From assembly GCA_013365325.1 (NCBI GenBank), contig JABVXV010000027.1:248001-312000 (forward strand): 64,000 nucleotides of DNA. Direction: 5' to 3'. Under the pieces are notes generated by a model. It saw only the letters and a list, made by a program, of their open reading frames with translations, did no database searches and was not told the DNA's origin. Positions within the stretch are counted from its first letter, which is position 1, and each line of letters starts with the position of its first letter. Source of the stretch: Dipetalonema caudispina. Taxonomy: Eukaryota > Nematoda > Chromadorea > Rhabditida > Onchocercidae. Positions 13,316 to 63,178 of the stretch are shown one piece after another. The position numbers and the translations under genes are program-made.

Positions 13316-16300
13316 TTAACTACTGGAACTTTTAACGCTTGTGGTGGAGGATTTTTCTGTCTGAGTGTGCTCGGTATTCAAGTACTGCTCTTTAGACTTT
13401 TCCGCTTTTTTTCTCGACTTTGCAGTAGTTTCTGAATGTTTCTGCTGATCTCCAACATCTTCGTCCGATTGTGTTTCTAATGTCTTCCTTCTCGCTATAT
13501 CTACTGATGATGGTGTCAGCGGTTTTGTTTCTGTCTTCCTTGTCACTTGAGTCCGTTCTGAACTTGGCCGTAATTTTTTGGCTTCTATTTTAGCCTGAAA
13601 TAAGGCAAGGATGGAGTGCATACCAGTCAATACTTTGGTCAATTTCAAGCTTGTTTATACAATGTTTCTGCTATGAACAATTGCGCACCAACCCTATCTG
13701 GCTTAATCAGTGATTTCAAAAACGCGACTTAACGTCATGATGGTATAGAAATAATATGGATAAAGTTGTATCCTTTTGTTCATTAAGGTTCATTGCAATC
13801 CTATTTTGCGTATAACAACCAAAAATAGAACTCGGTTCAATCAAATCTATTTTTACCTTTTCTAGCTCTCCAAGCGAAGATTTAGCTTTCTCCAAAAGGA
13901 TTGGAAGCGTTTGCTAAATGAAACAGTTTAATTTTATAGGAATTTCTGAATATGCTTGCATTTTAAAGAAAAATTTTTTTGCTAAGAATAAGTTCCGAAT
14001 TCTCTACGCATCTTTCCAACGCAAGTGTCTATCTAATCTGTAGATAGACTGTATTCAGCTTAATGCCAATATATTCAGTTGAATGTGAAACGATTACCGC
14101 AGTCCTGGAAGCTGTTGACATTATTTTCTTTTTGACACTGCTCTGTAAATTTGAAAACTATTTTTCTTGGGAAAGCAATTAGATAGTAAAATTTCAGTCA
14201 ACTGTTAAAAACTTCATCAAACATGAACGAAGCGGTTAACCTTCTTTCTTGATAATATTTTGTCCGGCTCTTCCGTTTCAGTTTCTAATGATATATTACT
14301 TTCTACATCCAAAGTTGGCTGATCGGCACTTCGCTCATTATCGATAAGGACTGACATTCCCTCCTAAAAATTGTGCAGATTTCTGAGTTTTGAACGGTTC
14401 AACTTTCTTTCGAATCAACTGTCACCCATACTGTTTATTCTATTTCAAACTTCTCACAATATTTTTAGGAATGAAAGAAAGTTTACATCTTCACCAACAG
14501 GTTTTAGTGTTACAACTGCTGGTCCCAGAATATGATAATGATCATCCAAGCTTGTTGAAGGCTTCAAAGCAACAATCATCGCTCGAAATCCGATGATAAG
14601 CTTCCTTCCAATCCCAACTTCAATATCTTTTCGACCGCCCACCGAATATCCACGTCTTGTGTACAATTTTTCGAATTCATCCAGCGTTATTAAAGCGAAA
14701 CTACAGTAATGTCACCGAACATTATTTCAGTTTCAATTAATAGTACACGAATTTCTATAAATTTAATTATGACTCTTTTGGGAATAAATTTTGATATCAT
14801 TAGCTTAAATTATCAAAATTTGTCCATTTCGGAAATGATTCTTCCAACTAGGGATTATACATTCTTTTGTATCCCGATAAATTGATCTAATCTCTAGCCA
14901 TATCAGCAGTAAAAATAACGGATTGTGCAAACTGCTACCAATATTTTGCACAGAGTAGAAATATGACATTCCTTCCAAGAAAGTAAATACGAACGATTCA
15001 TGTTGTTCCTTTAATTCATAGATAAGTCGTCGTGTTTGCTCCTTTCGCGATATTGTTCTAATTATTGAGCTGTCAAATGAACGAACGATATCCATTATAT
15101 CTTCATCAATCTTAATCAATATACAGTCGGTCGATGTTCGATATTCAACTTTCGGTTTTTTCACTGATTCACGTCGCTAAAACAAAAATAAGACCAAATT
15201 GCATATGTTGCTGAAAAAAAGATTCCTTAAAAAAGACAATTATTTTTTGAATCATTTTTGAACAAAATTAAACGAAGACATCAATTTCTAATCAAAAATT
15301 ATAAAAACATAAAATTTGTGCTAATCTCAAGACTAGCTTTCTTCTCTCTTTTAGTTCCAATTTATAAGTTTATTAGATTATATATGGGCAGTCGGTTTTT
15401 GGAAGTTTGCATTAGATTTATCGCTTCTTTCACTGAAATTTCAAAAAAAAAAACAAACGAAATCATTTTTATCCAGCAAATTTCGCTCTCCAACAAAACG
15501 TCCCTGATGTACGTAGTAATCATGCTTGTGTTCTTTGCCTCGTCTCGATAATGTCATTTCAGTTACTCTATAATTAATAGTCGTATTTATCAATGATAAT
15601 GCTGCACGGCCATATTCATATTTGAAACGAAACTTAGCTTGTTTCGCTAATTGAAGGTAATCCTTTAAGTTTGTAGAGATGAAACTACACCGAAATGTAA
15701 AAAACAAAATTTCTCAAGATAGATATTATGTCGTTAAAAATAAATAACCAACTTGCAAATGCCCTTCCTGACGAAGTACATCGTCTTCCCGAATGTTTGA
15801 ACCAATTGTCCGCTTGGATGTTCAATTCCTGATTGTGTTTCAAGATATCTGACCAGTTTATCTACTAATTCTTGCCTTTTCTGACTATCAATAGCCTGAA
15901 TCCAATGGACAGATTCTAGAGTATCCTGATAACTAGGATCCGGAGAGTTAATTAGACGTTCGCCGCGATCACGCAAACGATTTAAAGAGCGCTCCCATTG
16001 CTTTATTGATTCGTGGTGCAAAAATCCTTGCCTGTAATCAAAACGGCTATGTATCAAATTCACGGAAATTTGAATTTTGAGAATTTAAAATCAGTTTAAT
16101 CGAAACAATTAATTAAGAAAAGAGTCGTTTCAGAAATTTATAGAGTTGAAATCTTAATGATTAGATTCTCAAAACAAACAAATTCTTTAAGTGTTTCCAA
16201 ACTTAGTCATCTCGGCTGTCTTTACATTTATGACCCTCAGAAGCTAATGCATTAACAATCGGAAATGAAATCGTAATTTCTACTAACTTCTGCAACTCAA

Positions 16301-19300
16301 CAATAGTGTGTTCCAACGTTTGTGCAGCCATTCGGATGGCTTGTTTGGTCTTGATAACAGTAATTAGATCAAGCACTTCTTTGTTTTTTTTCATCGCTTT
16401 CCGGATCAAAGCATCCACAATTTTATTCAAATGTTTCTGTTCTCCTAATGCTATCTGGTAGGAATCACCCGGAAAAAACGTAAATTTTGCTGGTGGTTGA
16501 CTGAGCAGAAATTGAAGAAAATAAAGTGCTGAGAGTTGAATACGTACACGCAGAAGCTGAAACAAAGGCAAATACTTCATGAAATATATGACATAAAGTA
16601 TAAGTTGATTAAAGTGGAATGAAAACAGATGACATCATATACATAGAAGGGGACGTGAGGACAAGAAACAGTAACATACGTTAGCGGTATATAATGCTTC
16701 ATGCAGCGTGAAAATGAACAGTGGTGTGATACGCAGGATTTTCAGAAGTGTCAAAAGTACCACAAATAAAAGAAGTATAAAACGCATCGTGTTGCATACA
16801 GCTGAAAACACGATAGTGAAAAGAAAATAAAAAGAGAAAAAGGAAGATTTCTTCTAAAAAAGGAAAAGAGATTTCATAGTGTCAAGATTCCAGAATATTA
16901 TCACAATGATCTAAGAACTAGAAAACAATGCATGGATTCAGAAAGAGATAATCAAGATATCAAAATTTCTGTGCAGGAGATATCGAAAGACCCATCTAAG
17001 GAATCTTAAAAAGTAAAATTTCATCCTTTTATCAAATTGCGCTTCTCTGAATGCTTTCTTCCTCTTTGGATTTAGAGCAACCGAAAAAGCCAGAAAACTA
17101 AAATGATGTGACAGCACTAACATAATACTCTCCACTGTCCATTATCTTGTATGCATGAACCATTCGGATATTTGGCCAATATAATCGAGAGGACGATACA
17201 TATGCCGACAATCAGTGATACGTAAACAAGAAATAGGACAAACTCGATAGTGATTCTATTCACGCTTTGAAAGCAGCGCATATCCAGACGATCTAATTCC
17301 TAAAATTATCGTCTATAATTTCTACAGAGAATTGTGGGAATATGACGTTGTTAATGTCATTCATTGAGCAGCTTCGCAATATTTATCCACGATTGTACGT
17401 TGGTTGGTTGTAAACACTCGGCTGGTTCCGGGAATGCAATGTAATTCAATATTTCAGCAATTCTCACTTTAGGGCACTAATAACAAACTTTTATATGGCC
17501 ATTTCAGAGGAGAAGTTAGAATAGAAAATTGATAAAGTTGAATAGCTGACTAACTAGTCGATACGATGGTTTTCGTAATCGATGAAAATGTACCACTTCT
17601 TCAACAAAAAAAATGAAAGCAATCAGGAATGTGAACATCAAAACTGAATAGCTGACATCGGTTTCAACTGCTGGCTGCCAGAAGATGACAAATGCAATCA
17701 GGATCGACTGAATAACAGCCAAAAATGCGGAAAATATGCACCACCTTTAATTAAAAAAAATCGAATCAGGAAAAATGCAAGACGAGAATGAAGAGAGCCG
17801 CTGGGGAAACAGACTATAATATTCAGGTACGTCCAAGTTTGATAATTAAGAATGACTCTTAATTGGTGGTAGAAAGAGAACGTAAAGACAATTGTTTCTT
17901 TGATCGCCAAATATATACCATTCTAGAGATCGAACTGGTTTTAAAATGGAAATATTAGTGGGAATTGGATAAGGCAAGAACGGAATACCCATCCAGTTTA
18001 GACGATTCAGCTTTGTATCCGTATCAATCCAACACTGGAAATTTGAAAGTTTAAGTTTAATATATTTTGAGGTATTTGTAACTGGATATAATGATAAATT
18101 ATTTAGTGAAAATTTTATTGAGGATCCAATAAGATATCTCATTGGATTTCAACTGATATTCCATTAAATACTGCTTTAAAAACTATGAAGAATATGTTGC
18201 TTTTTGAAGTAATTTCTAAAAGTTTAACCCGCAACACTGTTAGGATCTTCAATTCGACATGATGGTACCACTTGTTATCAGCGGAATTCAAATGTTCGCA
18301 GAAGTCATCTAACGTTAACTTTCCTTCGTCAACACCATGTTCCAGGAGGTCGATTACTAAATGCGCCGCACGTCCAGAAATTGCACCCAAAGTCCAAAGG
18401 CTATATACTCGAGCAAGAAGAATGTTATAGTAACCAGTGCAAACGTCACTATCGTCTTTCTTCTATAGTTCAAAAAATTTGAGCCATTTGCTTTAGCATT
18501 TAATTTCAACAGAGAAATTCGTCAAATTGTGGAGTTATGCTGAGGAACATATGATACCTCATAATCAGGTGTGAGAGACTTCGGTAGTCTTTCTTTCGAA
18601 ATAGTCAGAATTTAAAAGTAAACAAACACAGGGACAAAAATGAAGAAGATAAGATACCATAAGAAGTGATTCATCTACCGATTGGCTGTCAATACTTTTC
18701 ACTGATTCATCATACATGCTGGTCTGTACCCGTGAATACTGTCCAATATTGCTTGCAAAGCCCTGAAAACCACAAAGTGTCATCAGTTACTTTTGTCAGA
18801 ACTACGATAACCACTACAAAACATCAAGAATGATGATATCCAGAAGTAAAAGCATTTTAAACAAACTTTGGTACTTCGAAAACGAAAATAAATAAGTTAA
18901 GAAAAACAAGTATTCATCATATATACGTATTGGATAAATCTTTTTAGAAAAACTTATTTTGAAGACGTTAGCTTCAATTTGCTCATTGACAACGGTCCAA
19001 TTAGCCTCTGTAAGATAAGAGTCAGCTTGCCGACGCATTGCTCCTATATTCGTACGTAACGTACGATTTAAATGTCGTTCTACATTCTTCTCCGAATCTT
19101 TGATGTAACGTGATCGACGATTTGTACCTTCACGATTTGTAACGTACGAAAATGTCATACCCTGTAATTCTCCATATTTTACTACGTTATCAATAGTATT
19201 TTAACTAAATTTCTGATGGAATGTTTACTTGATAAGAAAATTGCTTACGTCTTTCAACTAGCCAAAAAGTACGCTTAACTTGAAAAATAATACTTAAGCA

Positions 19301-22300
19301 TTAAGAGCTTTCTGCAAACTATAAGACATATTATGATGGTAGTATAAAGAGTGATAGCTAAAGATATTTTGGTATCAGCAGTGACTACCTGAATCACTAA
19401 ACAAACAAAAACGGCGGAACTCGCATAAAGTACCACTTTCTCGCCAATTCGACGGGCGTAAGGATCATATTGAACACTTTCGGTAAATTCATGTACCAGT
19501 AGGAGTGCCAATGCTCCTTTCAGACCGCCGTACGCCAAAAGGACGTAATCGGTATCATAAACAATATGAGAACTGCCAAGTGCATTCCAAACTTCACGAA
19601 ACACAAGCAACGCCAACATACGAGCCACCAATGATATGGGGAATAATAGTACGCCGGAGATTAAGTGATAAATTACATCAATCTAAACATTCCGTTCTCT
19701 GCGAGCAATATAGACATGGCCTACTACCTTTAGACTTTATTACTCATACAGTTATTGACTCGGAAACCCGAAGGATTCAAAAGACATATTTGTAAATTGC
19801 GAAAAAAATAAGGATTCACTTCAACTGGATTATTGAAGAGTAGCAGACCGATGGCATAGCCGCTGAACATGAATACGATGCAGTTAGCCCAATAACCAAA
19901 TGCTGTCCAAATTTGTAAAGTTAATTCTACACTTCTCGGACTTAATCTTTCTCTACAAATTGATGCAATATACAACAAAAGAATTTTTGAAGCTTTTATA
20001 AGAATTTATCGAAGGATATAAAATCGTTGAATAATTAAAGATCCAATATTACCCATACTTCTCCTACTCTGTGGAACCTGTGGAAACCGATCCCGATTAT
20101 TAACTTTTCCTGAATCATAATGTTTGTGGAACAACGAACAATCACCTAAGATAGTTCAATGTAACACCGTAAAAGACGGTGGCTACAGCAGCCGATCCCT
20201 TGGTCACTTCACCCAGTTGCCATACAAAGTATACCGAAATCACCAAGAACATCTGAAACTGCAAAAATTTTAAGCAAGGATTACTTAAAGGAAAAAGACC
20301 TTTTGTATCATAAAAAACATATAGTTTGCACTTAAACTGAAACTGGATGGCTTTTGATTCCAGCTAAGAAACGAACCAACTTCAAGCTAGACCTTGAATC
20401 GCAGCAATTCCTAAAATCTCGTCCAAGGTACCTCATAAAATAATATATTTTCTTACAAATATTTCACACAATCATACCAATTCTCAATGTTAAAACAACA
20501 ATCAAAAGTAACAGAGAAACAATAAATAACCTGAATTCTTTTTTCCTCACTAATACCATGCCGTATAATCATTACAGTAATATGAGCACTGGTGTATCCC
20601 AATAAAGGCGATATTACGATACAGCTTACACACATCGCTGCATAATGAACAAAAGTGTACGGATAGGATGGCAAATTTACTTCCTTCTGAAAAAGTTCAA
20701 ACTATTAACTTTCAAAAACCATCCAATGTTTGGATATTTTCATTGTAAAATACTGATTCAGCACAAGATTAGCAAGGTCTCTACTTTATGGCACAACTTG
20801 GCTAATTTACAGGACTATTGCGGAAGAGCATCAAAACATTACTGAAATAGAGCAAGAAAGTTTTACTTAACATAAAACTACTATTTAATATGCCATTTCA
20901 TTAATGATATTAGGGATTTAATAAATTGAATTAGAAAGATACAAGTGCGTTTCTAACAATAACCCTACCATTTGGAGAAAAAATTGTGAACAGAAAAGAA
21001 CTACCAAAACAAAATTGCGGAGAATTTGATAGACGAAAATGGCTAGGCCATCGTTGAGCAACGATTCACCCTCTACCAATATTTTGATACGCTGTGGTGC
21101 GCCGATATCTTCCAGGATCGCAACAACTGCTACAGGATCTGTTGCTGCCAAAATTGCACCCATCAACATAACCTACATGATTTCAAGTTATCATTATTCA
21201 GAAAACTGCCCCATTTCTCTCAAAAGATCTTGCTATAGATTTCAGATAAATCATATATATGGACGATTGGGCATACTTACACGAAAAATGATTGTGAAAT
21301 GAGCCAAGGACAAAAAGAGAAAAATGTAAAAGTCTAAAACGTTAACATAGTCAATGTTCAAGTAAATAAAGTAAGCCTAGAAAGAGTCAGTCAAAGTTAT
21401 GATAATCTAACCCAAAAAGTAAATATAGAACACGATTTGCAGTCGGATTTTTCATGATAAAAGTATGCTATATGGCAATTTTTTAGCATTATCGATAGTT
21501 TCCAATAAAAAAAAATTCTAACATAAGAACGAAATTGATTGAATGTTAGAGCGAAGTTAGACGTGTATCGGTAGGTAAGTAAAAAAAATTTACGTAAATA
21601 GAAAAAGTGTATGTAAGTAATGTGTAAATAAAAAAGTGTACGTAAATTTAAAAAAAACGCTTCGTAAAAACTCCGTTTCGATTAAGAATCTAAAAGGGAA
21701 ATAGAAAATAAAATGTTTTGGAATGGAAAGTCATCTCTTCATAACTAGTTTACTTCACGTACTTCCGAGTAATTCACGATACCACCCAGTGGTATTCGAG
21801 AGAATGGTACGTGAGGAAGAAAGCTGATCAAAAATCAATAATATCAGAAATACTCTACCAAAACTATATCTTTTCTGATGTTAATTTGCATGAAATCCAA
21901 AATGTCTATTTATTTAGGTTGGCAAGTCATTTCAATAATAATCACACCAACCGTGAACATATTCCAATTATCTGTAATCCGTAAAAATGGTAGCATTAGG
22001 GCGGTGTATAATATTAGCGTTAATAAATAAACAGTAGCGGTGAGAGCGAATAGTAGCCGTTGCTTCCGAAAGAATAAATGTGAATTGCTTTTCACCGCAG
22101 ATTCAAAAATAAGTAGCGGTAAAAGAACCTAAATGAAAGTTAACTTTGTCCGGAATAGTTTGCTTATCCTATTCTCAAAAAAGGAATTCTCGTGTGTTGT
22201 ACGGATCAGTAAATTTGAATCACTGATCATAATTAATATCATAAACGTACTCCAGCAACGATGCCTGGTTCAACTGTCTTCCACGTGTATGTCTCATCAA

Positions 22301-22874
22301 TGTGCGCCATCAAATTTTGAGGAAAGAATAAGTGAAGAATGAAACTAAAATGTTGCATTGTTTTTGGAGATAAAATATGGGTGATTTATGTCATTATTTA
22401 ACAAATTTCAATTTATCAATTTTAACTCTTCGTTCTCCAGCAAATGTGATGATCAAAGGTTGGCACGATCGAAAGTTCATCGTTTCCTGATGATTACGCA
22501 TTTTAATCACTCCACTTTTTTGACTGCATCAAACAATTTAAAAAAGAATTTCGAATAAGTCGTAGAAAAAAAAAAAAACTAATTGAAAAGTTGAAGAGTG
22601 AAAAATAGGATATAATTGATTAAGTAGTGGATATTAAAGAATATCATAGATGTTATTACACATAGATGAATGACAAAACAATTCATAAAATTACATTTTG
22701 ATAGGATATTTGAGAACAAAAAGAGGGATGAAACCTTGTGCCAAGTGCGAATAAGAAAATAAGAATAGTATCCGGTATACGCAGAAATCGGATGCGACGA
22801 TTTGTAGCATCTAATACAAGACCGGTAACAAGAGCCAGAAATGGGAACAAGAATACTTGCAACGATTTGGGCAT
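13316..22874 (-). CDS. SLC9C-type Na+/H+ exchanger (NHE + voltage-sensor-like + CNBD)
   Basis: Twenty-six exons (high to low): 22874-22735, 22344-22251, 22128-21952, 21172-21011, 20686-20531, 20252-20146, 19952-19820, 19682-19389, 19161-18967, 18762-18658, 18462-18229, 18034-17919, 17744-17555, 17476-17399, 17299-17161, 16801-16680, 16556-16235, 16026-15753, 15684-15459, 15176-14991, 14886-14861, 14700-14487, 14363-14241, 14142-14098, 13913-13857, 13594-13316. They sum to about 1397 aa. Residues 1-420 are a multi-helix CPA1 exchanger with ATDPVAVVAILEDIG (ion-site Asp about 149), GESLLNDGLAIFVYQ and YGGLKGALALLL. Residues about 638-815 add at least four membrane segments. Residues about 1000-1150 read as a cyclic-nucleotide domain: KTMYFVRKG, GRFVGERNLL (GE of the phosphate cassette) and YRTSTDCILIKID. 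The last 200 residues are charged and disordered. Plant SOS1 shares the exchanger and CNBD but not the extra helices, so SLC9C (sperm NHE, about 1180 aa in humans) fits best. Two joins are uncertain: 16235/16026 and the 26-nt exon at 14886. Confidence 0.82.
21571..21660. repeat. degenerate GTAA-rich tandem repeat
   Basis: Several imperfect copies of a unit resembling AAAAAGTGTACGTAAATA follow one another within an intron of the exchanger gene. It is low-complexity and has no coding potential. Confidence 0.5.
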
Positions 22875-29200: not shown

Positions 29201-32200
29201 TAAAAAAAAAGAAAAACAAATAAACCAACACAAAGGGTGGAAATGGAAGCGAACGCATAGGATTAACAGTAGCGGAAGTAAACTGTAACAACAGAATTTT
29301 TTTGCCTACAAATACACGGCAGTAATAGAAATGAAGCAAAATACACGACATGTATTGGGAGTATGATGCAAATAAGATGAAGTTTAAGGTACTTAAAGCA
29401 CATCGTTAAGCCATTGGAAATCTATTTATTCTTTCCTTAATTTTACTGCTGGGTATGACTTTAATCTGGCAGTAGTGTGGAAGTGATAAATTTCCCCAAT
29501 GTTGATAACTTCCTCTTAGCCGAAGTACACATACTCTTAGCTGGGAAATAAATATACAGCTGGCTTCAACTGTAGTAATTTTCTGGTAAAAATATCTGGC
29601 AGACTTCCAATGAAATTGTTATTTTCACATTTTTTGAGGATGAGGACGATGAAAATTCGTTGGCATCTATGAAATGCAAAGATTTGAAAATGTTAGTTCC
29701 CGATCGTGCTGCCTCACTCCTCGATTTCAATACATCTCATAATGATTTAAAAAGAGATGATGCTGATGAAACGTATTGTGATCGTAATGTGACTTCAACT
29801 CTTCAACAACATAATATTCACTTCTCGGAACTTCCTTCAGTTGGTTTCACTTCTTTGAAATCTTGGAACTTCGAAGTATTTTCACTATGAGTGAGTTTGA
29901 AACTGTCGAATTTTTGTGCACTAGCCATTAAATTCTATGACTGGCGCCAGAAATTTCTTAGAGTAGAGCAAGTTGATTCTCAACTTACATGTTTCATTTG
30001 CACTAACTCCAAGCTTACGTAAATTTATTTTAAGTTTGTTTTAAGATTACTTAGAAATCTAGGTATCATTGAAACGCTTTGTTTCAGCGAATGAAAGAAC
30101 TCGAATTGTCAGTGGCTGCTATGCAAAATTCATATATCAAGGAAGAATATTATGTATGATTTTGTGATGCTTTATTTGTGTTTCTATTAGTTTTTCAAAT
30201 GGGTTTTAATTGTTGTGGTATTTATTTCCATCAAACTATTGAATTTTTAGACTTCCAACACTGAGTTTCAGGAAAAAGATCAATTTGCGGCTAGGCTTGC
30301 AAGTGCTTCGATTTTGAAAATCAAATTTCATGATTATGACGAAATGTCCGTTCGCAAGTTATGGTTGGCTTTGAATAGTAATGAATATAATTATCCGTGG
30401 GCTTTGCACTGCTTCACTGGCGGATTGGTATGTTAGTTTAGACTAGTACGACAAAGACACTTGTAAAGCACAAGAGAATTAACTTGAAATTTCGGGAAAA
30501 GACCTAAAGAATTGAGTGGTTTTAACTACGGCGCATTTTCATAGGATAATGTTCAAATCCGTTTTTATTTCCATTCGATGCTCATACTTATGGAGTGTTG
30601 CTTCATCAAATCTTAATTCTTATTGTGTAGAATACTTTTTCAGGAACCAGTGGTACGATGCACATGTTGTAGTGCAGATGGTCATTTGCGAAAAAATTGT
30701 CCTGAACTTATGATTCCAAAACCTAAGAATTTCCCACCGCTAACCAGTGCTCAGAAAAGAATAATTGATCTTATCATCTCCGATATTTTCAGTAATTCAT
30801 TTCAAACAAATACTTTAGATTGGAGTGTTTTTGCAAAAAAAATGTATTGACGTAGTTGCATCCGTCAATTCATACATTAATATTTAAGGATCTTTTTTCA
30901 AATTTTATCAGTTACTTAGTTTGAAACATCTTCATCTGGGAAAGCAGTTATACTCTTCCAAATTTGCATTTTTACTTATTGACCATGGTTTCTAGTACTG
31001 GATAAATTTAAGCCGAATAAATCTAAGAAAGAGTGTAGCGAAAGTGCATCCATCAGTGTTTTCTTCTGCAAATTCAAATTTCATGTTTCACGAGTAATAG
31101 AAACACATTCTGCGTTAGATTTCAAATAACAGCAGTATTAAAATTAAGAAAGAAAAGAAAAGCAGAAAGTGATTCTGAAACAAAAAAATTAGAACTGGAG
31201 AAATAGGAAAAAACTAAATAAATTTAACTTTTTAATAGGGAAGGATATCAAGTGTTTGTCAAACTAAGTGCTGGCAAGTTAAAGGAATTCTAATTTCCAA
31301 CAAATATATTTTTCAGATACAATGCGAATAAGACCCTATTATGTGTACCATATGTCAGCGCTGTGCCGCGAACTTGAAGGTTACCTTCGGCGTTTTTATC
31401 GTACTGATTGTCATCTTTCATTGTTCGGTTCAGCTGGAAATGGATTCGGTCTTTTAGGTTCTGATGCTGATATTTGTCTTCGGTTTGGACCAGAAGTGAG
31501 ACCTGAAGTAAATTTTAAAATGATTTTTGTTAAGTCTGATCAATATCTTTCAATTTTTCAATCAAAATTCATGAGATTCGTTTTATCATATGATTTATGA
31601 AATTCAATTTACCATTAATAAGAAAAATGGTGATAAATTTCACAAATTCCAGATGACAAATTTTTCAAATTTGACTATTTCCTATTAGAGATGAAACATT
31701 CCTACAGGACATCGATTCGGCGGAAGTCATATGTAAAGTCGCTGAGGTAGTTCGTAAAATGCCCAACGTTTCATTTGTCTGCGAAATTCCACATGCTAAA
31801 GTACCAATCGTGAAGTTCCGTTGTCGTAATCACTATCATCTTGAGGCAGAGTAAGTATTTTACGTAAACCAAGAGAGCATACCTCATTTAATTGTTTAAA
31901 TTACCAACTGGAATTTATTTCCAATCGAATCTGTTGACTTACATTAGTTATATACCTTTATTAATAATTGTTGAATAGTTCTAAAGTACACAATTTTTTT
32001 TAAAGCAATCTCGATTACAAAAATATTCAGTTTCCTTTGGATTTCAATTGATTTTTAGTGTGTCACTGTATAATGTGCTAGCATTAGAGAATACACATTT
32101 GTTGCGGACATACAGTAAGCTTGATCGACGAATACATCAGTTAGGAATAATGACAAAAATTTGGGCTAAAAACTGCGAAATTGGAAATGCATCGAAAGGA

Positions 32201-45717: not shown

Positions 45718-48161
45718 TCATTCTGGTACTGAATTGTATAATAATATTGCTCCGCAAACAGTTATGGAACCGGTAATAAACATCAAATTTATCTGCATAT
45801 CGTGGATTATCAAATAAGAGATCATAACAACCAAGACGATACTCACTGCTGAGGCAAAACTTTTAAATAAGTTATCCAGATATTTCACCACAAGTGATAT
45901 GAAAATCCCACCTGAAATAGAAAGAAGAACTTTTGCATTTATCGCTTACTATTTGCTGCTCTATTATTCACAATATTTCTTTCTCCTTGTAATTCATTCA
46001 TTTCGTATTCGCCTTTTTATCTAACTATCTATCTACTGGAGGCATCACAATATTCAATGATTATATTCGATACTTCACTGGAAACTTGCTTGACTAATTT
46101 CATCTTCAAAAACTTACCAACCATGTTTAATGTTTGTACCATATATTGCTGGTCAGCTTTCGAAAAATTTTATGTACGTCTACCTATAAGTAAAAAGAGA
46201 AATAATTAACTTACCTATACTCAAGAATAGAATGATAGCAATGACATTAATATTATAGCCGTAAAAAAATCCTTTGGTCAGAATTCTGTTCCAGTCAGAA
46301 AGAATGCATCCCAAGGCTGCGCTCATTACGCCACAGCCATACATCTGAAGATTCCGTATCCAGAACGGTGTTTCACTGCCGTCTTTAAGCATATATTCAA
46401 AATATACCCCTGCAAACTGAACAAAGAACTCAAGATTCCTATCATTTCTGAATTTACAACTGTCTAAACTAAAACTAAATTAACATTTTCTAATACAGGT
46501 TACCAACCAGCAAAGCCTGCGGTCACACATGTGAGTAATACAGCGCCCAATCCAACCATGTAATTTTCATCGCTTTTCTCCGCAATGCTTGTTTCGTTTA
46601 TGCTAAGCTATAAATTCAAAATATCAATTCTAAACTGAATGAAATTCAATTTCAACTTCAAAAATACTGAAATAATATTGTGAACAATTTAAACAGTTTT
46701 AATCTTATACATTCCACTGTCATTTTACTAAAAACTTTCCAGTTCGCTAAAGCGTATGCCATAACATATTGAAATATCAAATGAGACAGAGATTACTTCT
46801 TTATAATTTTTTATCCTTTTAGTTGCATTCTTTACTTGTACTTGTATAAACATTCAATCAAAAGATAGTCAATTACAGTAGTGAAGAACAAATAAACGAG
46901 CACTGTACAAAATACACAAACATACCTCAACAGCAGCAACACCACCAAAAAGCAAGAAAATTGCAAGCCATCGTGTACCCGAGAATCGTCGTCCAAGGAT
47001 AATCATCATAAAAATGGCCGTAGAAACTACTTTAAGTTGAGTAGTAACATGATATACAGCAGCATTCAAATTTGACAATGCCACGAAGTCAAGATTATTT
47101 TGAAGTGCATAGGCTATCGACGGAAAAGCCATCTTCAGGAAATCCTTTGGCTTCCCGAAATATTCCTCTCTTATACACTATAATTCAATTGATTGCTACA
47201 TACTTCTTATTTGTTCTGTTAGTTTTTTGAAGAAATCAATTGTTTAAGAAACTGTCATTCGTTAAAATTTTCTCCCGACTTTTTTCTTAACTTTTAGATT
47301 TTGATGTTACATTTAATATAGACTTGAATTTTTACGAAAATAAATAAGCCTGAAATGATAATAACAGCTTCGATGACTTGTATGCACCCATGTTGATGAT
47401 ACCTCAGATATCAAACAAGTAAAAGTAAACTTACTCTTGTAAATTCCTTCACATTATAGTTATTGAGTTGAAAGACAAAGAATAAAGCAATAAACATTTT
47501 GATCACTTCCGCGAGATATACGACTGTTGTTGAGGAATATTGCTGGAAAAGGTCAAACATTCTAATAATAACAGATTTTTTCTCAAACTATAACACATCA
47601 GAAGGAAGGAGAGAGAACTGGAATGAATTTAGTTAAGAATAACATAAATTGGTAATGACAAGATAATATATTTTATGATACTATCTGATAAGTAATACAA
47701 AGTATTAATCTTTTATGTTATTAAGTGTAATGAAAATAATAGTAGAACGAGAGCAAAATAGTACCAACAATTTAAAAAATATATAAAGAAAGGCTAAATT
47801 AACATATAGTAACAATCATGTTAGAAATAAATAAGATTATTTCAAAATAATTGAATGATCGACAGGATATTAAACACTGACAATGAATATTAATCCGATC
47901 ATCGGAATATTTTATAACGATCCCTAAACTGAGGTATATTTCCGTATTACGAATAACCATATTACATACCAAATGCTTGGGAGTGCTTGAACGAGAATAT
48001 CTCACAATTATTGTATAGCTTGTCCAAATGAAAATCATCTGAATAATAATGAAACATTTAAAACGGAGATTACTTCGTCCTTCATTCTCATTCATCTTTG
48101 ACGATTTCGATGGGAGGATATCTTCCGATGGTAATTTCTCCCAGTTCCCGTTAATTAACAT
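45718..48161 (-). CDS. SLC35A-family nucleotide-sugar transporter
   Basis: Six exons, all in phase (high to low): 48161-47970, 47542-47435, 47177-46926, 46607-46508, 46409-46215, 45911-45718, giving 346 aa, close to the 325-395 of the family. The SLC35A signature runs through it: SSTTVVYLAEVIKM, then FPSIAYALQNNLDFVALSNL, TTQLKVVSTAIFMMIILGRR, GFAGVYFEYMLKDG, FWIRNLQMY and GGIFISLVVKYLDNLFKSFA. About ten hydrophobic segments fit a Golgi antiporter exchanging a UDP- or CMP-sugar for the nucleoside monophosphate. Substrate cannot be read from sequence; UDP-galactose or UDP-GlcNAc is likelier than CMP-sialic acid in a nematode. TTTATTGCAG ends two bases before the ATG, a good trans-splice site. 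Next to a SMA-2-like gene, it may be the UGTP-1 counterpart. Confidence 0.9.
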
Positions 48162-53264: not shown

Positions 53265-56200
53265 ATGCTGATGGAAAAGAGCAGCAGTTTTGATGAGAGA
53301 GATATGGACGAAGCATTAGAAAATAATCTTCAAACGAAGGAAGATGGAAGTCTCGAGGGTGTTGGAGACGAAGCGACATTCAGCGACAAGGTAGTGATTA
53401 ATTAAATTTCATTCTGTTCTTCTTGAATTTAACATTTTCAAATTATCAGCTAAATAAGGAAACTAATCTTAATTACAATATTATTTAGAATAAAATTTAC
53501 GTATTTAATAATGCAATCGATTGTAAGAACAGATCATACAAAAAAAGGCGAGAGTTGAATTTACCCTTTCCAGTGTTTCTGCTATGTATGATTGATGAAT
53601 TGCTTCGCTTTCCTCTTAAATAATATAATTTTCAAAGTTAGAAATAGCGATGTGCTGTACTGTAACTGCAGGTGATTCGTACCGTTGCCTCAATTAGTGG
53701 TGGTGGATTATGTCCTGCTGATATGGATGTTGTCGATCAAATCAATGCTTTGTTTCCAACAGAGCAGTCATTATCACAATTAGATTCAGTGATGCACTCC
53801 ATCGAGGATGAAATTGTTGGCTTGGATTATCAGCTGGCGAAACTTGTTGAAACGCATGGAAAGGCCGGTGTCGAAGGAGATCAGGCGTTACATGAGGTTG
53901 ATAATTTTTTATTCCAAACACTTATGGTTGTTGACTAGTGATATATGCGTAAGCAGAGATAAAAACAAGCAAACCAAACTCGAACTTTTTTCAAATTTAT
54001 TATGCTACTTGAGTGTTAAGGCTCATGCAGCGATGGGAGATTTAGAAGAACGTGTACATGCCGTTTGCTTGAAGACACAATCCTCAGAAAGTATTGTACA
54101 GGAAATGACCCGTGATATCAAGCAACTTGATGTTGCAAAGCGAAATTTAATCTCGTCGCTTAAAGCACTTCATCATCTTCAAATTTTGCTGACTGGCGTC
54201 TATTCACTCGGTATCGTTTGTCTTATTGGAAAGCTGTTTACGTTCAAGCTCTACAGTAAATAACTTCCACAATAAACAACGGTTTCAGTATAACGAGAGG
54301 AATTCTTACGTATCCGTATAATTAGATGATTGATTCTAATCACCTAAAATGATTTAAGTCTTTTATCAGTGCTACTGGATTAAATTACATAACATCTGAC
54401 AAAGAATGACATAATTTGAAATAGTAATCTTCGTTTCACATTTCTGTATTACAATGCCACACATTTCAAAAATTTGGAAAAATTTTATTTCTTCATGCAT
54501 ATTACAACAAATAGGGCAGAATCTTTTTACCACTTAAAATAGTCAGATGAATTCAGACTTTACATTCAAGAAAGAGGATGGTAAAAGTTACCTATATTTT
54601 GGAATGTCAAAAAGTCTGAAGACTTCAATTTGCTCGCAAGTTTGTTATCAAGATTTGCGAAACGTTAGCTATGGCTCTAATTTTTAGATAAAAAAATTAA
54701 TTTAAGATGATGATATATGCTGTTTGTTGAATCCTAGAAAATCACTGATTTCCACTTTTCGTGAAAGAAAGTTTTGTAGTATGAACTTACTTGACAGGAT
54801 CATGGATAGATCAGCATCGATATGGTGATATTGCATCGCAGTTACCGGCTGTTCTAAATGTCTTACAACTTTTTGGCCCGTATATGGAAGTGGAGCATAT
54901 CAAAAATGTCGCTGAACAACTCGAACGATTAAAACAGCGATTAGCTATTCAACTTATTGCAGATCTGAAGCATTCATTCCAGGTTTTTGACTGATTAAGA
55001 AATACTTTCATTGCTAATTCCCTTCAAATTAAAGTTGTAATTCTTTTTTTTTTTCTAAAATATCGATGATTTAATTGATATTCAGACAGGAGTCTTGAAT
55101 TCTTCGGTGACTGATATGTGCCGCGTTGCTACATCGTTAGATCCAGTTATACGAGAAGATTTTTGCAAATGGTTTATAGAGCATCAGCTTTCTGAATATA
55201 CTGTGCTTTACGGTGAAAGTGAGAGTATTGCTTGGATTGATAAAATTGACTTAAGGTTGTTTCAAAATCTGACCTTTTATCAGTTTTGATTTAGTGATGG
55301 TATTTAATCGAGCATTTGCTCTTTTTATAGATATCGATGGTTTGTGCAAAAATTGACAGAATTTGAAAAAACAGGTATGATGAAAGTGTTTCCTGCTGAT
55401 TGGGATATCGGCCGACGTTTGACTTTGGGATATTGTAATTTGACAAGGTATTCATTTTCATTATGCTTTTCATTGGATTTTTCTAATCTAATGTTCGAAA
55501 ATCTACTTTGCAAAAGCGACATGAAATCATCTGGACAAATAAAAATTCTCAGAAGAATCTCTACTTCAATTACCTGAAAGTGTTGCTTTCGATTCCTCAC
55601 ATTTTTTATTACCAATTTATCAGAGAAATGTTAGAACGAATGATGTCGAGACGTTGGTTGGAACTCGATTATAAAGTACTTGCGCACGCAATCAATCATA
55701 CAATAATGTTTGAAAATCTACTTTGCAAAAGGTTTCCGGCAAAGGAAGGTTACAACTTTGAAAAGGTATGTTGTTTTTGATTCATCTAAAACACCCTATG
55801 TCCCTAGAAAATGTTGATGATCGCCATGACAGTTTATATATCTAACAGCACATTTGGTTAGATATTTGATTGACATGAAATTAAAAGAATTGGTTAATGA
55901 AACATTTGCATGTCTTTTTAGATGGTCATATTCGGAAAGGAAAGAATAAATTTTTTTTTAAACTACTAAAAGCAGCCAGAATGTGTAAATAAGACTATAT
56001 GAGATAAAATTTGCTCCCCGCTATAATTTGGGACGAGAGAAAAAGTACTAACATTCAATTCAGATCATTTGGCGAGCATTCGACAAATACATGGATGTAT
56101 TTGTGGCAGCACAAAAGAAAAATTTGGATAGCTTTTTAGAGGAATGCGTAATAAGGATCAGGAGTGGTGCTGAACGACCAACCCGAGAAACAGCGTCCCA

Positions 56201-60564: not shown

Positions 60565-63178
60565 ATGTCGGAACGTTGCTCAACGAAATTATCATTTGAA
60601 TTACCACTTTTCCTTGCTTATGTCACAGGTCAAGTACTTTTCTTTCCATTGAACAAGTGCTGTAGTTGGTTGAGTTATTTCTTCAGAATTCGTTGATGGG
60701 GACATTTTCTGGTTTTTAGATTTTAAAATCCTGGTGAAATTCAGAGAATTTACTTACAACTGTTAAAACTTAAAGGAATTTAGGCAATGATGCATGTGAT
60801 GTATTGTTGGAGCTGGAAAAAGAATACAACGTGAAATTTATCATAGGTGAAGATTCAGTTTATGTGGAAGGTATGAAGGAGCAGAATCTGAAGCCCATCA
60901 AAGAAGCACTTTCTGATGCTTGGAAGATGGATGATTTTCAGCGGTTATTGAACTTTTTTATCATATAATGGTTAATAGTTGAAATGACGTCACTTTTTTC
61001 TAAAAATCATTGACCACTGATGAGTAGATGTTTAATTAGGAATGGAAACGTTAATAATAAACGAATATTCGTATTAGTTAGTTGCTCTAATATCATTCTA
61101 TTCGAACGTTTTGTTGTTGCTTTTGTATCTGATATGGAATCTGTCATCATTATTAAATTTCATATTTTCCTCTGAATTGTCATACTTTTAAAAGCCTTGC
61201 AGTGCTATAGAAATATGTGAATTAACGAATAAATCAGACTATCAATTTCTGTTTGAAGTATCACCTTCGGAAGCTGCTCTTATACAATTGAATGCTAAAT
61301 CTCTTCTACACCGAACGGGAGTACTGCAGTTGAAAGTATATTTTCAAATAAAAACGTGAAATAGTTGTCATTTTTAATATTTTCCAACCTATGATCACTT
61401 TTGCAGACAGATAGCGATGGTCATGTTTGTATTTTCGGGAACGGATCCTCAGTTTGTGATGCCTACGATACGATAGTTTCGATTCTTCGCAAAGCATCTT
61501 TTAAGAGCAGTAAGTTTAGATTTTCGTGATTTGTTTGCTTATATAAGTGGAAGAGAAAAGATTACATAATTATATTTAAATTAAGTACTGAAATATATGC
61601 TAACGCTATATTCGAGTAGTTTTTCTTTCCAATTTACGATATCCGTTATGCTTTCGTTATCTACTCCGCTAAGTTTAACAGAAAGTTTTATTCCTCAGAT
61701 TCTTGAAGCCATCTTTGAAGTAAATATAGTTCTGTTACATATTTTGAGACACCACTTTGCAAGGCTTCAATGAAGAACCTTGCGTTCTTCTGATGAATAT
61801 TCCGAGTGCAATTGCGCAGTTTGTATTTTCAAACGATAAACGAAGTGTAAATGCGTTAGAACGTTCATCCCGGTGCGTCGTTGAACCACATTTTAAAGAT
61901 GCTGATACAATTGGTAATACTAAAGTCAATATAATCACTAAAGATGTATGTTTCAAACAATTTGTTATTAATTTTTATATTTATATTGCTTCCTAGAAAC
62001 TAAAAAGTTATACATTGTGTTTAAGTCTTATTATCTCACAAAATTCAATGTTATGATTTTCGTATGTATATGCATATATAATGCTGTGATAGGTCAAATC
62101 GGGAAACAGGTAGTAAAGGTCATTCAGAAGTAGCATTACTAAACCCGGCGTACAATCTAGACAACATGAAAAACTGCGATAGAAGCCTGGACGATCTAAG
62201 CAAGCTAATTTGTCATTGCAGCTCGCCAAGGCATTAGCTGCAAAGACAGCGCTGATGGAACTGATTGAAAGTCATGTTGGGAAAATTCACAAATGGCCAA
62301 CTCCGGTAACAATTTGCTGTGGCTCGCGTGTGTCACGATCAATTCCAGAAGTATTTTGTCGCACATGTATATTTCTTGTTATTACTTTGGATTTGAAATG
62401 AATTCACAGACCAAATCCCTTTAATAATTTATGAATGCTTTCCAGTGTATGAATGTGAAGCTATGCTACGTAGTCCGACAAACAAGAGTTTGATTTTCAA
62501 CGTACCTGCTTCTGAAGCTTCACGTCTAATTGGCACTCGAGGATTAAATAAGAAAAGAATCGAAGAGCGCACAAACTGCTTCATTTCGGTTTTGTATTTT
62601 ATAAGAAAAAATTTCTTAAAACCTTGTTTAATATCAACTAACTCCTGATGAAGTTCTCTTCCTTTTTTACCATTGAATACTGAAGCTACAAAGAAAAGTG
62701 AAATTAGTTGTGACACGTAATTAATGTATAATTTGCAGTTGCACACAGAGGCGAAGCATAACGGTAAATTTCCTGTAGAAATAATTGGTCAAAATATGAA
62801 AGAATGTGAAGCTGCTCAGGCTTATATCCAAAATTTTCTGAAGGAAACACCCGGAATGAATAAAAACATGACTCGCACTAGTTTATCGAGTGCAATGCAA
62901 CCACTTCAACACTTCAGTTCTGAATTGGAATTGTCACAACTTGTTGCGCCGTCTCCTACCTATAAGTTAAAGCAAGTAGTTGCTGTTTTTTCATGATTTG
63001 AGTGCAATTATTTGAATTATTACTATGGTATCGGTTAACTGAAGACATAAATCTTTCTACTTACCCAACTTTGTTGCTTTCTAGGCCGTTATGCAACATA
63101 AGTATAGAAAGTCCGATGCAGTGGCAACCATTACGAAAAGTAACATCGAGGAAAATTTTCAGTGACGACAAAATCTAA
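60565..63178 (+). CDS. tandem KH-like domain protein, possibly Bicaudal-C/GLD-3-like
   Basis: Nine exons in phase: 60565-60628, 60784-60943, 61203-61335, 61407-61509, 61749-61945, 62222-62366, 62446-62588, 62739-62965, 63085-63178; about 421 aa. Four units share the KH pattern of a hydrophobic strand, helix pair, strand and long helix: about residues 9-70 (LSFELPLFLAYVTG), 80-150 (YQFLFEVSPSEAALIQL), 155-245 (CVLLMNIPSAIAQFVFS) and 280-345 (LIFNVPASEASRLIGTRGLN). Only the fourth keeps a GxxG RNA-binding loop (GTRG). Ser/Thr/Gln-rich sequence with no domain follows. KH proteins bind single-stranded RNA, while loop-less units usually serve as scaffold. Spacing and loss of loops resemble Bicaudal-C/GLD-3, but this is only a suggestion. 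The exon 6 donor (62366) and the exon 5 acceptor (TTTTGAG) are the weakest splice sites. Confidence 0.6.

What the first reader, a model, noticed from the sequence alone, without database searches (positions are those of the whole stretch)
13316..22874. Full-length SLC9C (sperm-type) exchanger architecture in a nematode
The reconstructed protein has a CPA1 exchanger core (ATDPVAVVAIL, GESLLNDG), extra membrane segments and a CNBD (MYFVRKG, GRFVGERNLL, YRTSTDCILIK). That order is known for SLC9C1, the voltage- and cAMP-regulated exchanger of flagellated sperm. Nematode sperm are amoeboid and lack a flagellum, so a complete SLC9C gene here implies another role, such as sperm activation by pH or somatic cAMP-linked pH control. 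I know of no described nematode protein of this type.
Basis: partly seen in the sequence, partly recalled or inferred. Interest (0 to 1): 0.8.

Follow-up and report, generated by a model that had tools for sequence, protein, structure and literature searches.

The report
Nematode exchanger with a charge-poor voltage sensor
Several groups of roundworms, whose sperm crawl and have no tail, carry a gene built like the voltage-gated sodium/proton exchanger of swimming sperm, but the part that should sense voltage has lost most of its charges, so it probably exchanges protons under some other control.

Summary
One minus-strand gene fills 22874..13316; orthologues refine it to 23 exons, 1306 aa. It has a CPA1 exchanger, four membrane helices and a CNBD-type beta-roll, in the order of SLC9C1. 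Relatives occur in filariae, ascarids, Steinernema, strongylids and Pristionchus. A 2024 review states that SLC9C is not conserved in nematodes (PMC11120249, one passage).

Exchange residues are kept: D238 in 18 of 18 and R399 in 19 of 19 ungapped nematode rows. S4 is stripped: its longest i+3 chain of basic residues is at most 2 in 16 of 16 evaluable nematode rows, against 3-8 in 28 of 28 canonical rows. The CNBD phosphate-site arginine is shifted in filariae and lost in some other nematodes. Voltage gating is unlikely, cAMP gating doubtful.

A fold predicted from nematode sequences alone ranks sea-urchin SLC9C1 first in the PDB, weakly. Trees do not separate SLC9C from SOS1-like origin (AU p 0.292). 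A sperm role is untested.

I call it an SLC9C-type exchanger with a charge-poor voltage-sensor-like domain.

The parts
13316..22874 (-). whole gene: 23 coding exons, 1306 aa
   Evidence: spliced model guided by orthologues, 22 GT...AG introns, phases consistent
19389..22874 (-). exons 1-8 (aa 1-423): CPA1 Na+/H+ exchanger membrane domain
   Evidence: Pfam Na_H_Exchanger 26-430, E 2.8e-28; PDB profile search has SpSLC9C1 first
21005..21172 (-). exon 4: ATDPVAVV and GESLLNDG with the ion-binding ND aspartate (SpSLC9C1 D238)
   Evidence: D in 18 of 18 ungapped nematode rows and 29 of 29 other rows
18967..19161 (-). exon 9: start of the intracellular helical linker
   Evidence: conserved in the orthologues; the orthologues' extra VFK end has no GT right after it here
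17555..17744 (-). exon 13: S1 and S2 helices
   Evidence: hydropathy peaks aa 643-661 and 673-691; corresponding helices in the nematode-only model of P0123
17122..17299 (-). exon 14: S3 helix
   Evidence: hydropathy peak aa 725-743
16680..16801 (-). exon 15: S4 helix with only one KxxR pair
   Evidence: hydropathy peak aa 770-788; longest i+3 basic chain 2 (KILR)
16288..16556 (-). exon 16: post-S4 helices with KTKQAIR, like KTRQAIR of SpSLC9C1
   Evidence: phmmer and hhalign alignment to SpSLC9C1
14995..16031 (-). exons 17-19 (15753-16031, 15459-15567, 14995-15176): end of linker and CNBD-type beta-roll
   Evidence: profile of seven nematode CNBD pieces matches E. coli CRP at E 4.7e-5; sub-threshold Pfam match 0.0013
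13316..14700 (-). exons 20-23: region after the CNBD (beta-rich in the P0017 model) and a low-complexity tail
   Evidence: strands 1087-1150 in the model of P0017

Best explanation
This is a nematode SLC9C-type Na+/H+ exchanger: a CPA1 exchanger joined through S1-S4-like helices and a helical linker to a CNBD-type roll. Shown by sequence: gene structure, conserved transport residues, loss of most S4 charges, occurrence in several nematode orders. Shown only by prediction: the four helices fold like a voltage-sensor domain. Inferred: the exchanger is active and electroneutral; the four helices no longer sense voltage but remain as a structural or ligand- or lipid-responsive lever between membrane and exchanger, as in TRP channels; the CNBD is remodelled, so cAMP control is weak or absent, though a shifted arginine leaves cyclic-nucleotide binding possible in filariae and some ascarids. 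Tissue and role are unknown; pH control in amoeboid sperm or in somatic cells would both fit.
Confidence: 0.7

Rival explanations
1. A diverged SOS1-type (exchanger plus CNBD) protein whose four extra membrane helices arose independently of SLC9C.
For: Full-length tree groups it with SOS1-like rows at 73/91; SOS1-like HMM scores higher in 12 of 12; VIA-align ties SOS1 and SLC9C1; an unrelated helical subunit matches the bundle about as well as channel S1-S4 domains do.
Against: 0 hydropathy peaks at this place in 6 of 6 SOS1-like or bacterial rows that could be anchored; the nematode-only model has SpSLC9C1 in rows 1-12; pairwise exchanger scores favour SLC9C in 7 of 7.
Confidence: 0.17
2. A working voltage- and cAMP-gated SLC9C1.
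For: Architecture; S2 glutamate (E746) kept in 15 of 18 ungapped nematode rows; arginine at GE+10 in 13 of 18.
Against: S4 chain at most 2 in 16 of 16; K800, R803, R812 and K815 positions basic in 0/16, 0/15, 1/16 and 0/16; S3 D767 acidic in 0 of 16.
Confidence: 0.08
3. A decaying gene or an artefact of joining two genes.
For: One orthologue-predicted exon end (exon 9) has no GT right after it here.
Against: 23 open, phase-consistent exons; 92% and 93% identity to the A. viteae and Brugia rows; both halves in one predicted protein in several genera.
Confidence: 0.03

Closest known systems
SLC9C1 (sNHE, NHE10), e.g. sea urchin SpSLC9C1
   Same: Exchanger, S1-S4, helical linker and CNBD in this order; D238, R399, S2 E746 and the KTRQAIR-type motif
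   Different: S4 has one KxxR pair instead of up to 8 spaced charges; S1 E698 and S3 D767 lost; phosphate-site arginine shifted or lost, with an insertion; nematode sperm lack a flagellum (recalled)
SLC9C2 (NHE11) of mammals
   Same: SLC9C architecture with a reduced S4: three of seven charges and no R803 equivalent (PMC10049371, passages)
   Different: That paper says NHE11 keeps the phosphate-site arginine; the nematode protein keeps the ND motif, on which the passage seen contrasts NHE11 with sea-urchin SLC9C and NHE1
Plant SOS1 and SOS1-like CNBD exchangers
   Same: Exchanger plus linker plus CNBD; trees and HMM scores cannot exclude kinship
Voltage-sensor-like domains of TRP channels
   Same: Predicted S1-S4 range aligns to TRPML2, PKD2 and TRPV2 and is likewise charge-poor (recalled)
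   Different: No pore; linked to an exchanger

Membership tests
SLC9C | CPA1 exchanger with ND aspartate and SpR399 | tested here: met
   18 of 18 and 19 of 19 ungapped nematode rows of 19
SLC9C | four membrane helices folded like S1-S4 between exchanger and CNBD | tested here: met
   By prediction only. Hydropathy shows 4 peaks in 5 of 9 nematode proteins, the others 5, 3, 3 and 1; the urchin itself shows 3. Helix number is met; that the fold is a voltage-sensor fold is weakly supported
SLC9C | S4 with charges every third residue (working voltage sensor) | tested here: not met
   at most 2 in 16 of 16 evaluable nematode rows (3 of 19 too short) against 3-8 in 28 of 28 (1 of 29 too short)
SLC9C | CNBD fold | tested here: met
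   CRP match E 4.7e-5; beta-roll in the P0017 model; Pfam matches 5 of 14, 19.1 bits under the cut-off of 27.5 for the window protein
SLC9C | phosphate-site arginine (SpR1053) | tested here: inconclusive
   GE+9 arginine 0 of 18; GE+10 arginine 13 of 18; motif not found in 8 of 26 nematode proteins, some of them partial
SLC9C | clade with animal SLC9C | tested here: inconclusive
   AU p 0.292
SLC9C1 | testis or sperm expression; voltage and cAMP gating | not testable with these tools
   no expression or physiology data
SOS1-type | exchanger plus CNBD without S1-S4 | tested here: not met
   four hydropathy peaks in the window protein and four predicted helices in P0123

The most novel reading that the evidence does not exclude
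Nematodes kept SLC9C after losing the flagellum and sAC, stripped its voltage sensor and rebuilt its cyclic-nucleotide site, and now use it as a voltage-independent, otherwise gated Na+/H+ exchanger for the pH rise that starts crawling sperm; the Caenorhabditis line lost it. This would contradict the published views that SLC9C is not conserved in nematodes and goes with an axoneme.
Probability: 0.3. Interest if true: 0.75.

Novelty: new variant of a known kind. Interest (0 to 1): 0.58.

Why it matters
SLC9C1 is described as the only known transporter regulated by voltage-sensing domains (PMC10620092, abstract in the search listing). A 2024 review says SLC9C is not conserved in nematodes (PMC11120249, one passage), and a survey ties sNHE to species with an axoneme and says C. 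elegans lacks it (PMC6660944, passages). A nematode version with the exchanger intact and S4 discharged is a natural experiment on what the S1-S4 and CNBD parts do without voltage sensing. It also gives parasites of people and livestock a transporter that the survey did not find in C. elegans.

Tried and rejected
Two phase-0 open stretches in introns: 21282-21376 (a possible cassette between exons 3 and 4) and an arginine-rich frame at 16941-17141 that looks S4-like. Neither scores above shuffled copies against 25 nematode proteins (best 37 and 37, shuffled means 39.3 and 38.9), so both were left out. I first read the phosphate-site arginine as lost in all nematodes from the MAFFT columns; the CRP alignment and the spacing count corrected this to shifted in 13 of 18.

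Genome searches for CATSPERB_C and Radial_spoke gave 0 matches, but the tool's control genomes also gave none, so absence is not shown. Motile_Sperm gave 22 matches in the same genome. Ion_trans gave 50 exon matches, none on contig C199 that holds this gene. Paralogues: of the seven other PF00999 loci fetched, five match this gene, at 35-41% identity over 49-65 aa, so no close copy was seen; this is not a full search. The full-model VIA-align does not choose between SOS1 and SLC9C1. A paper search for Bm10817 listed only papers with unrelated titles.

Full report
What is there. The window lies in a 78 Mb assembly of 764 contigs. Its predicted protein scores highest with Elaeophora, Acanthocheilonema, Brugia and Wuchereria proteins, so I take it for a filarial nematode; I cannot name the species. 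Three-frame reading of the minus strand gave a 24-exon hand model of 1394 aa. Orthologue sequences and their alignment (A1, 14 rows) corrected it to 23 exons and 1306 aa. The 22 introns begin GT and end AG and the phases fit. At the end of exon 9 the orthologues have three more residues; here no GT follows that place, and the model uses a GT just upstream.

Occurrence. One search found 414 proteins at E up to 0.001, of which 120 were listed; P0001-P0020 are nematode: 11 filarial rows, then Toxocara, Anisakis, Parascaris, Ascaris, two Steinernema, Haemonchus, Necator, Angiostrongylus. (profile; 655 found, 120 listed) added Ancylostoma, Loa, Gongylonema and Pristionchus. Their titles are generic (for example 'Cyclic nucleotide-binding domain-containing protein', 'Sodium/hydrogen exchanger 7'). 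A 2024 review says SLC9C is not conserved in nematodes (PMC11120249, one passage), and a survey says C. elegans has neither CatSper nor sNHE (PMC6660944, passages).

Exchanger. Pfam Na_H_Exchanger matches 14 of 14 proteins in A1. In A3 (48 rows: 19 nematode, 29 others) the sea-urchin D238 position is D in 18 of 18 ungapped nematode rows and R399 is R in 19 of 19; both 29 of 29 in the others. In the sea-urchin protein D238A brings the Na+ response to the level of non-functional controls (PMC10620092, passages), and R399A abolishes exchange (PMC6052114, passages). That transport is intact is inference.

S4 charges. I counted the longest run of R/K at exact three-residue spacing in the region, which needs little from the alignment. 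Nematodes: 2 in 14 and 1 in 2 of 16 evaluable rows (3 of 19 too short); the window protein 2. Others: 6-8 in 22, 5 in 1, 4 in 3 and 3 in 2 of 28 evaluable rows; the 29th, P0022, has no VSD in the alignment. By column, K800, R803, R812 and K815 are basic in 0/16, 0/15, 1/16 and 0/16 ungapped nematode rows (others 25/28, 25/28, 27/28, 25/28); R806 and R809 are basic in 14/15 each; S1 E698 is acidic in 0/18, S3 D767 in 0/16; S2 E746 is kept in 15/18. The columns depend on the alignment. Reduced S4s are known in the family: mammalian NHE11 has three of seven charges (PMC10049371, passages) and a ctenophore VSD is described as markedly degraded (PMC6660944, passages). New here is a further reduction across the sampled nematodes.

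CNBD. A profile of seven nematode CNBD pieces matches E. coli CRP at E 4.7e-5. The arginine stands nine residues after the GE glutamate in 24 of 29 other rows; in two of the five misses (P0219, P0295) my pattern hit another place. In the 18 nematode proteins where the motif was found, of 26 examined, it is 0 of 18 at nine and 13 of 18 at ten, the CRP spacing (window, ten filarial rows, Toxocara, Parascaris); Anisakis has K, two Steinernema W, Haemonchus G and Angiostrongylus T, whose stretch looks incomplete. cAMP binding is thus open for filariae and some ascarids and less likely elsewhere. The literature reports no sAC gene in nematodes (PMC12867704, one passage).

Descent. 'SOS1-like' is my label for plant and protist exchangers, most of which carry no CNBD mark in the listing; the protist names Chromosphaera, Creolimax and Corallochytrium are recalled from record prefixes. 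The exchanger-only tree (44 rows) sets the nematodes on a stem of 3.13 outside SLC9C and SOS1-like rows with weak support. The full-length tree (24 rows) puts them with SOS1-like rows at 73/91 and does not reject SLC9C (p 0.292). Group HMMs favour the SOS1-like set in 12 of 12. Pairwise scores favour SLC9C in 7 of 7 for the exchanger, but for the tail the best score belongs to another group in 4 of 7 (P0003, P0016, P0018, P0124). P0022 stood with SLC9C and with SOS1-like. Sequence alone cannot decide; the S1-S4 helices are what point to SLC9C.

Role. Intracellular pH rises during sperm activation in many animals including nematodes (PMC5991658, passages), which would give such an exchanger a job in amoeboid sperm. 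I had no expression data, and a somatic role is as possible. That nematode sperm are amoeboid and lack a flagellum is recalled.

Verdict. A conserved nematode exchanger of SLC9C build with a charge-poor voltage-sensor-like domain, in lineages said to lack SLC9C. It should work as an exchanger; I do not file it as a voltage-gated SLC9C1, because a defining feature, the charged S4, was tested and not met.

Noticed in passing
16941-17141 (-): Open frame with an arginine-rich, S4-like stretch inside the intron between the S3 and S4 exons; no counterpart in 25 nematode proteins.
   Followed up: partly
21282-21376 (-): Phase-0 open stretch flanked by AG and GT between exons 3 and 4, like a cassette exon, without counterpart in 25 nematode proteins.
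   Followed up: partly
18967 (-), end of exon 9: Orthologues carry three more residues, but no GT follows that place in this assembly.
   Followed up: no
P0281 and P0296: Two proteins with record prefix Nk52 (recalled as the unicellular holozoan Chromosphaera) have all three SLC9C Pfam domains and a 7-charge S4, although a 2019 survey found no VSD exchanger outside Metazoa (PMC6660944, passage).
   Followed up: no
31283-31597 (+): Exon matching the poly(A) polymerase/TUTase nucleotidyltransferase palm.
   Followed up: no
46872-47177 (-): Exon of a nucleotide-sugar transporter, E 3.8e-33.
   Followed up: no
53666-55286 (+): Two pieces matching Vps53.
   Followed up: no
62397-62645 (+): KH-domain exon.
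   Followed up: no
P0125: Unnamed 742-aa protein, 25% identical over 39% of the query, with a longest S4 charge chain of 1; its source organism is not given.
   Followed up: no
P0017 model, residues 1087-1150: A beta-rich part follows the CNBD in the predicted structure; its identity was not searched.
   Followed up: no
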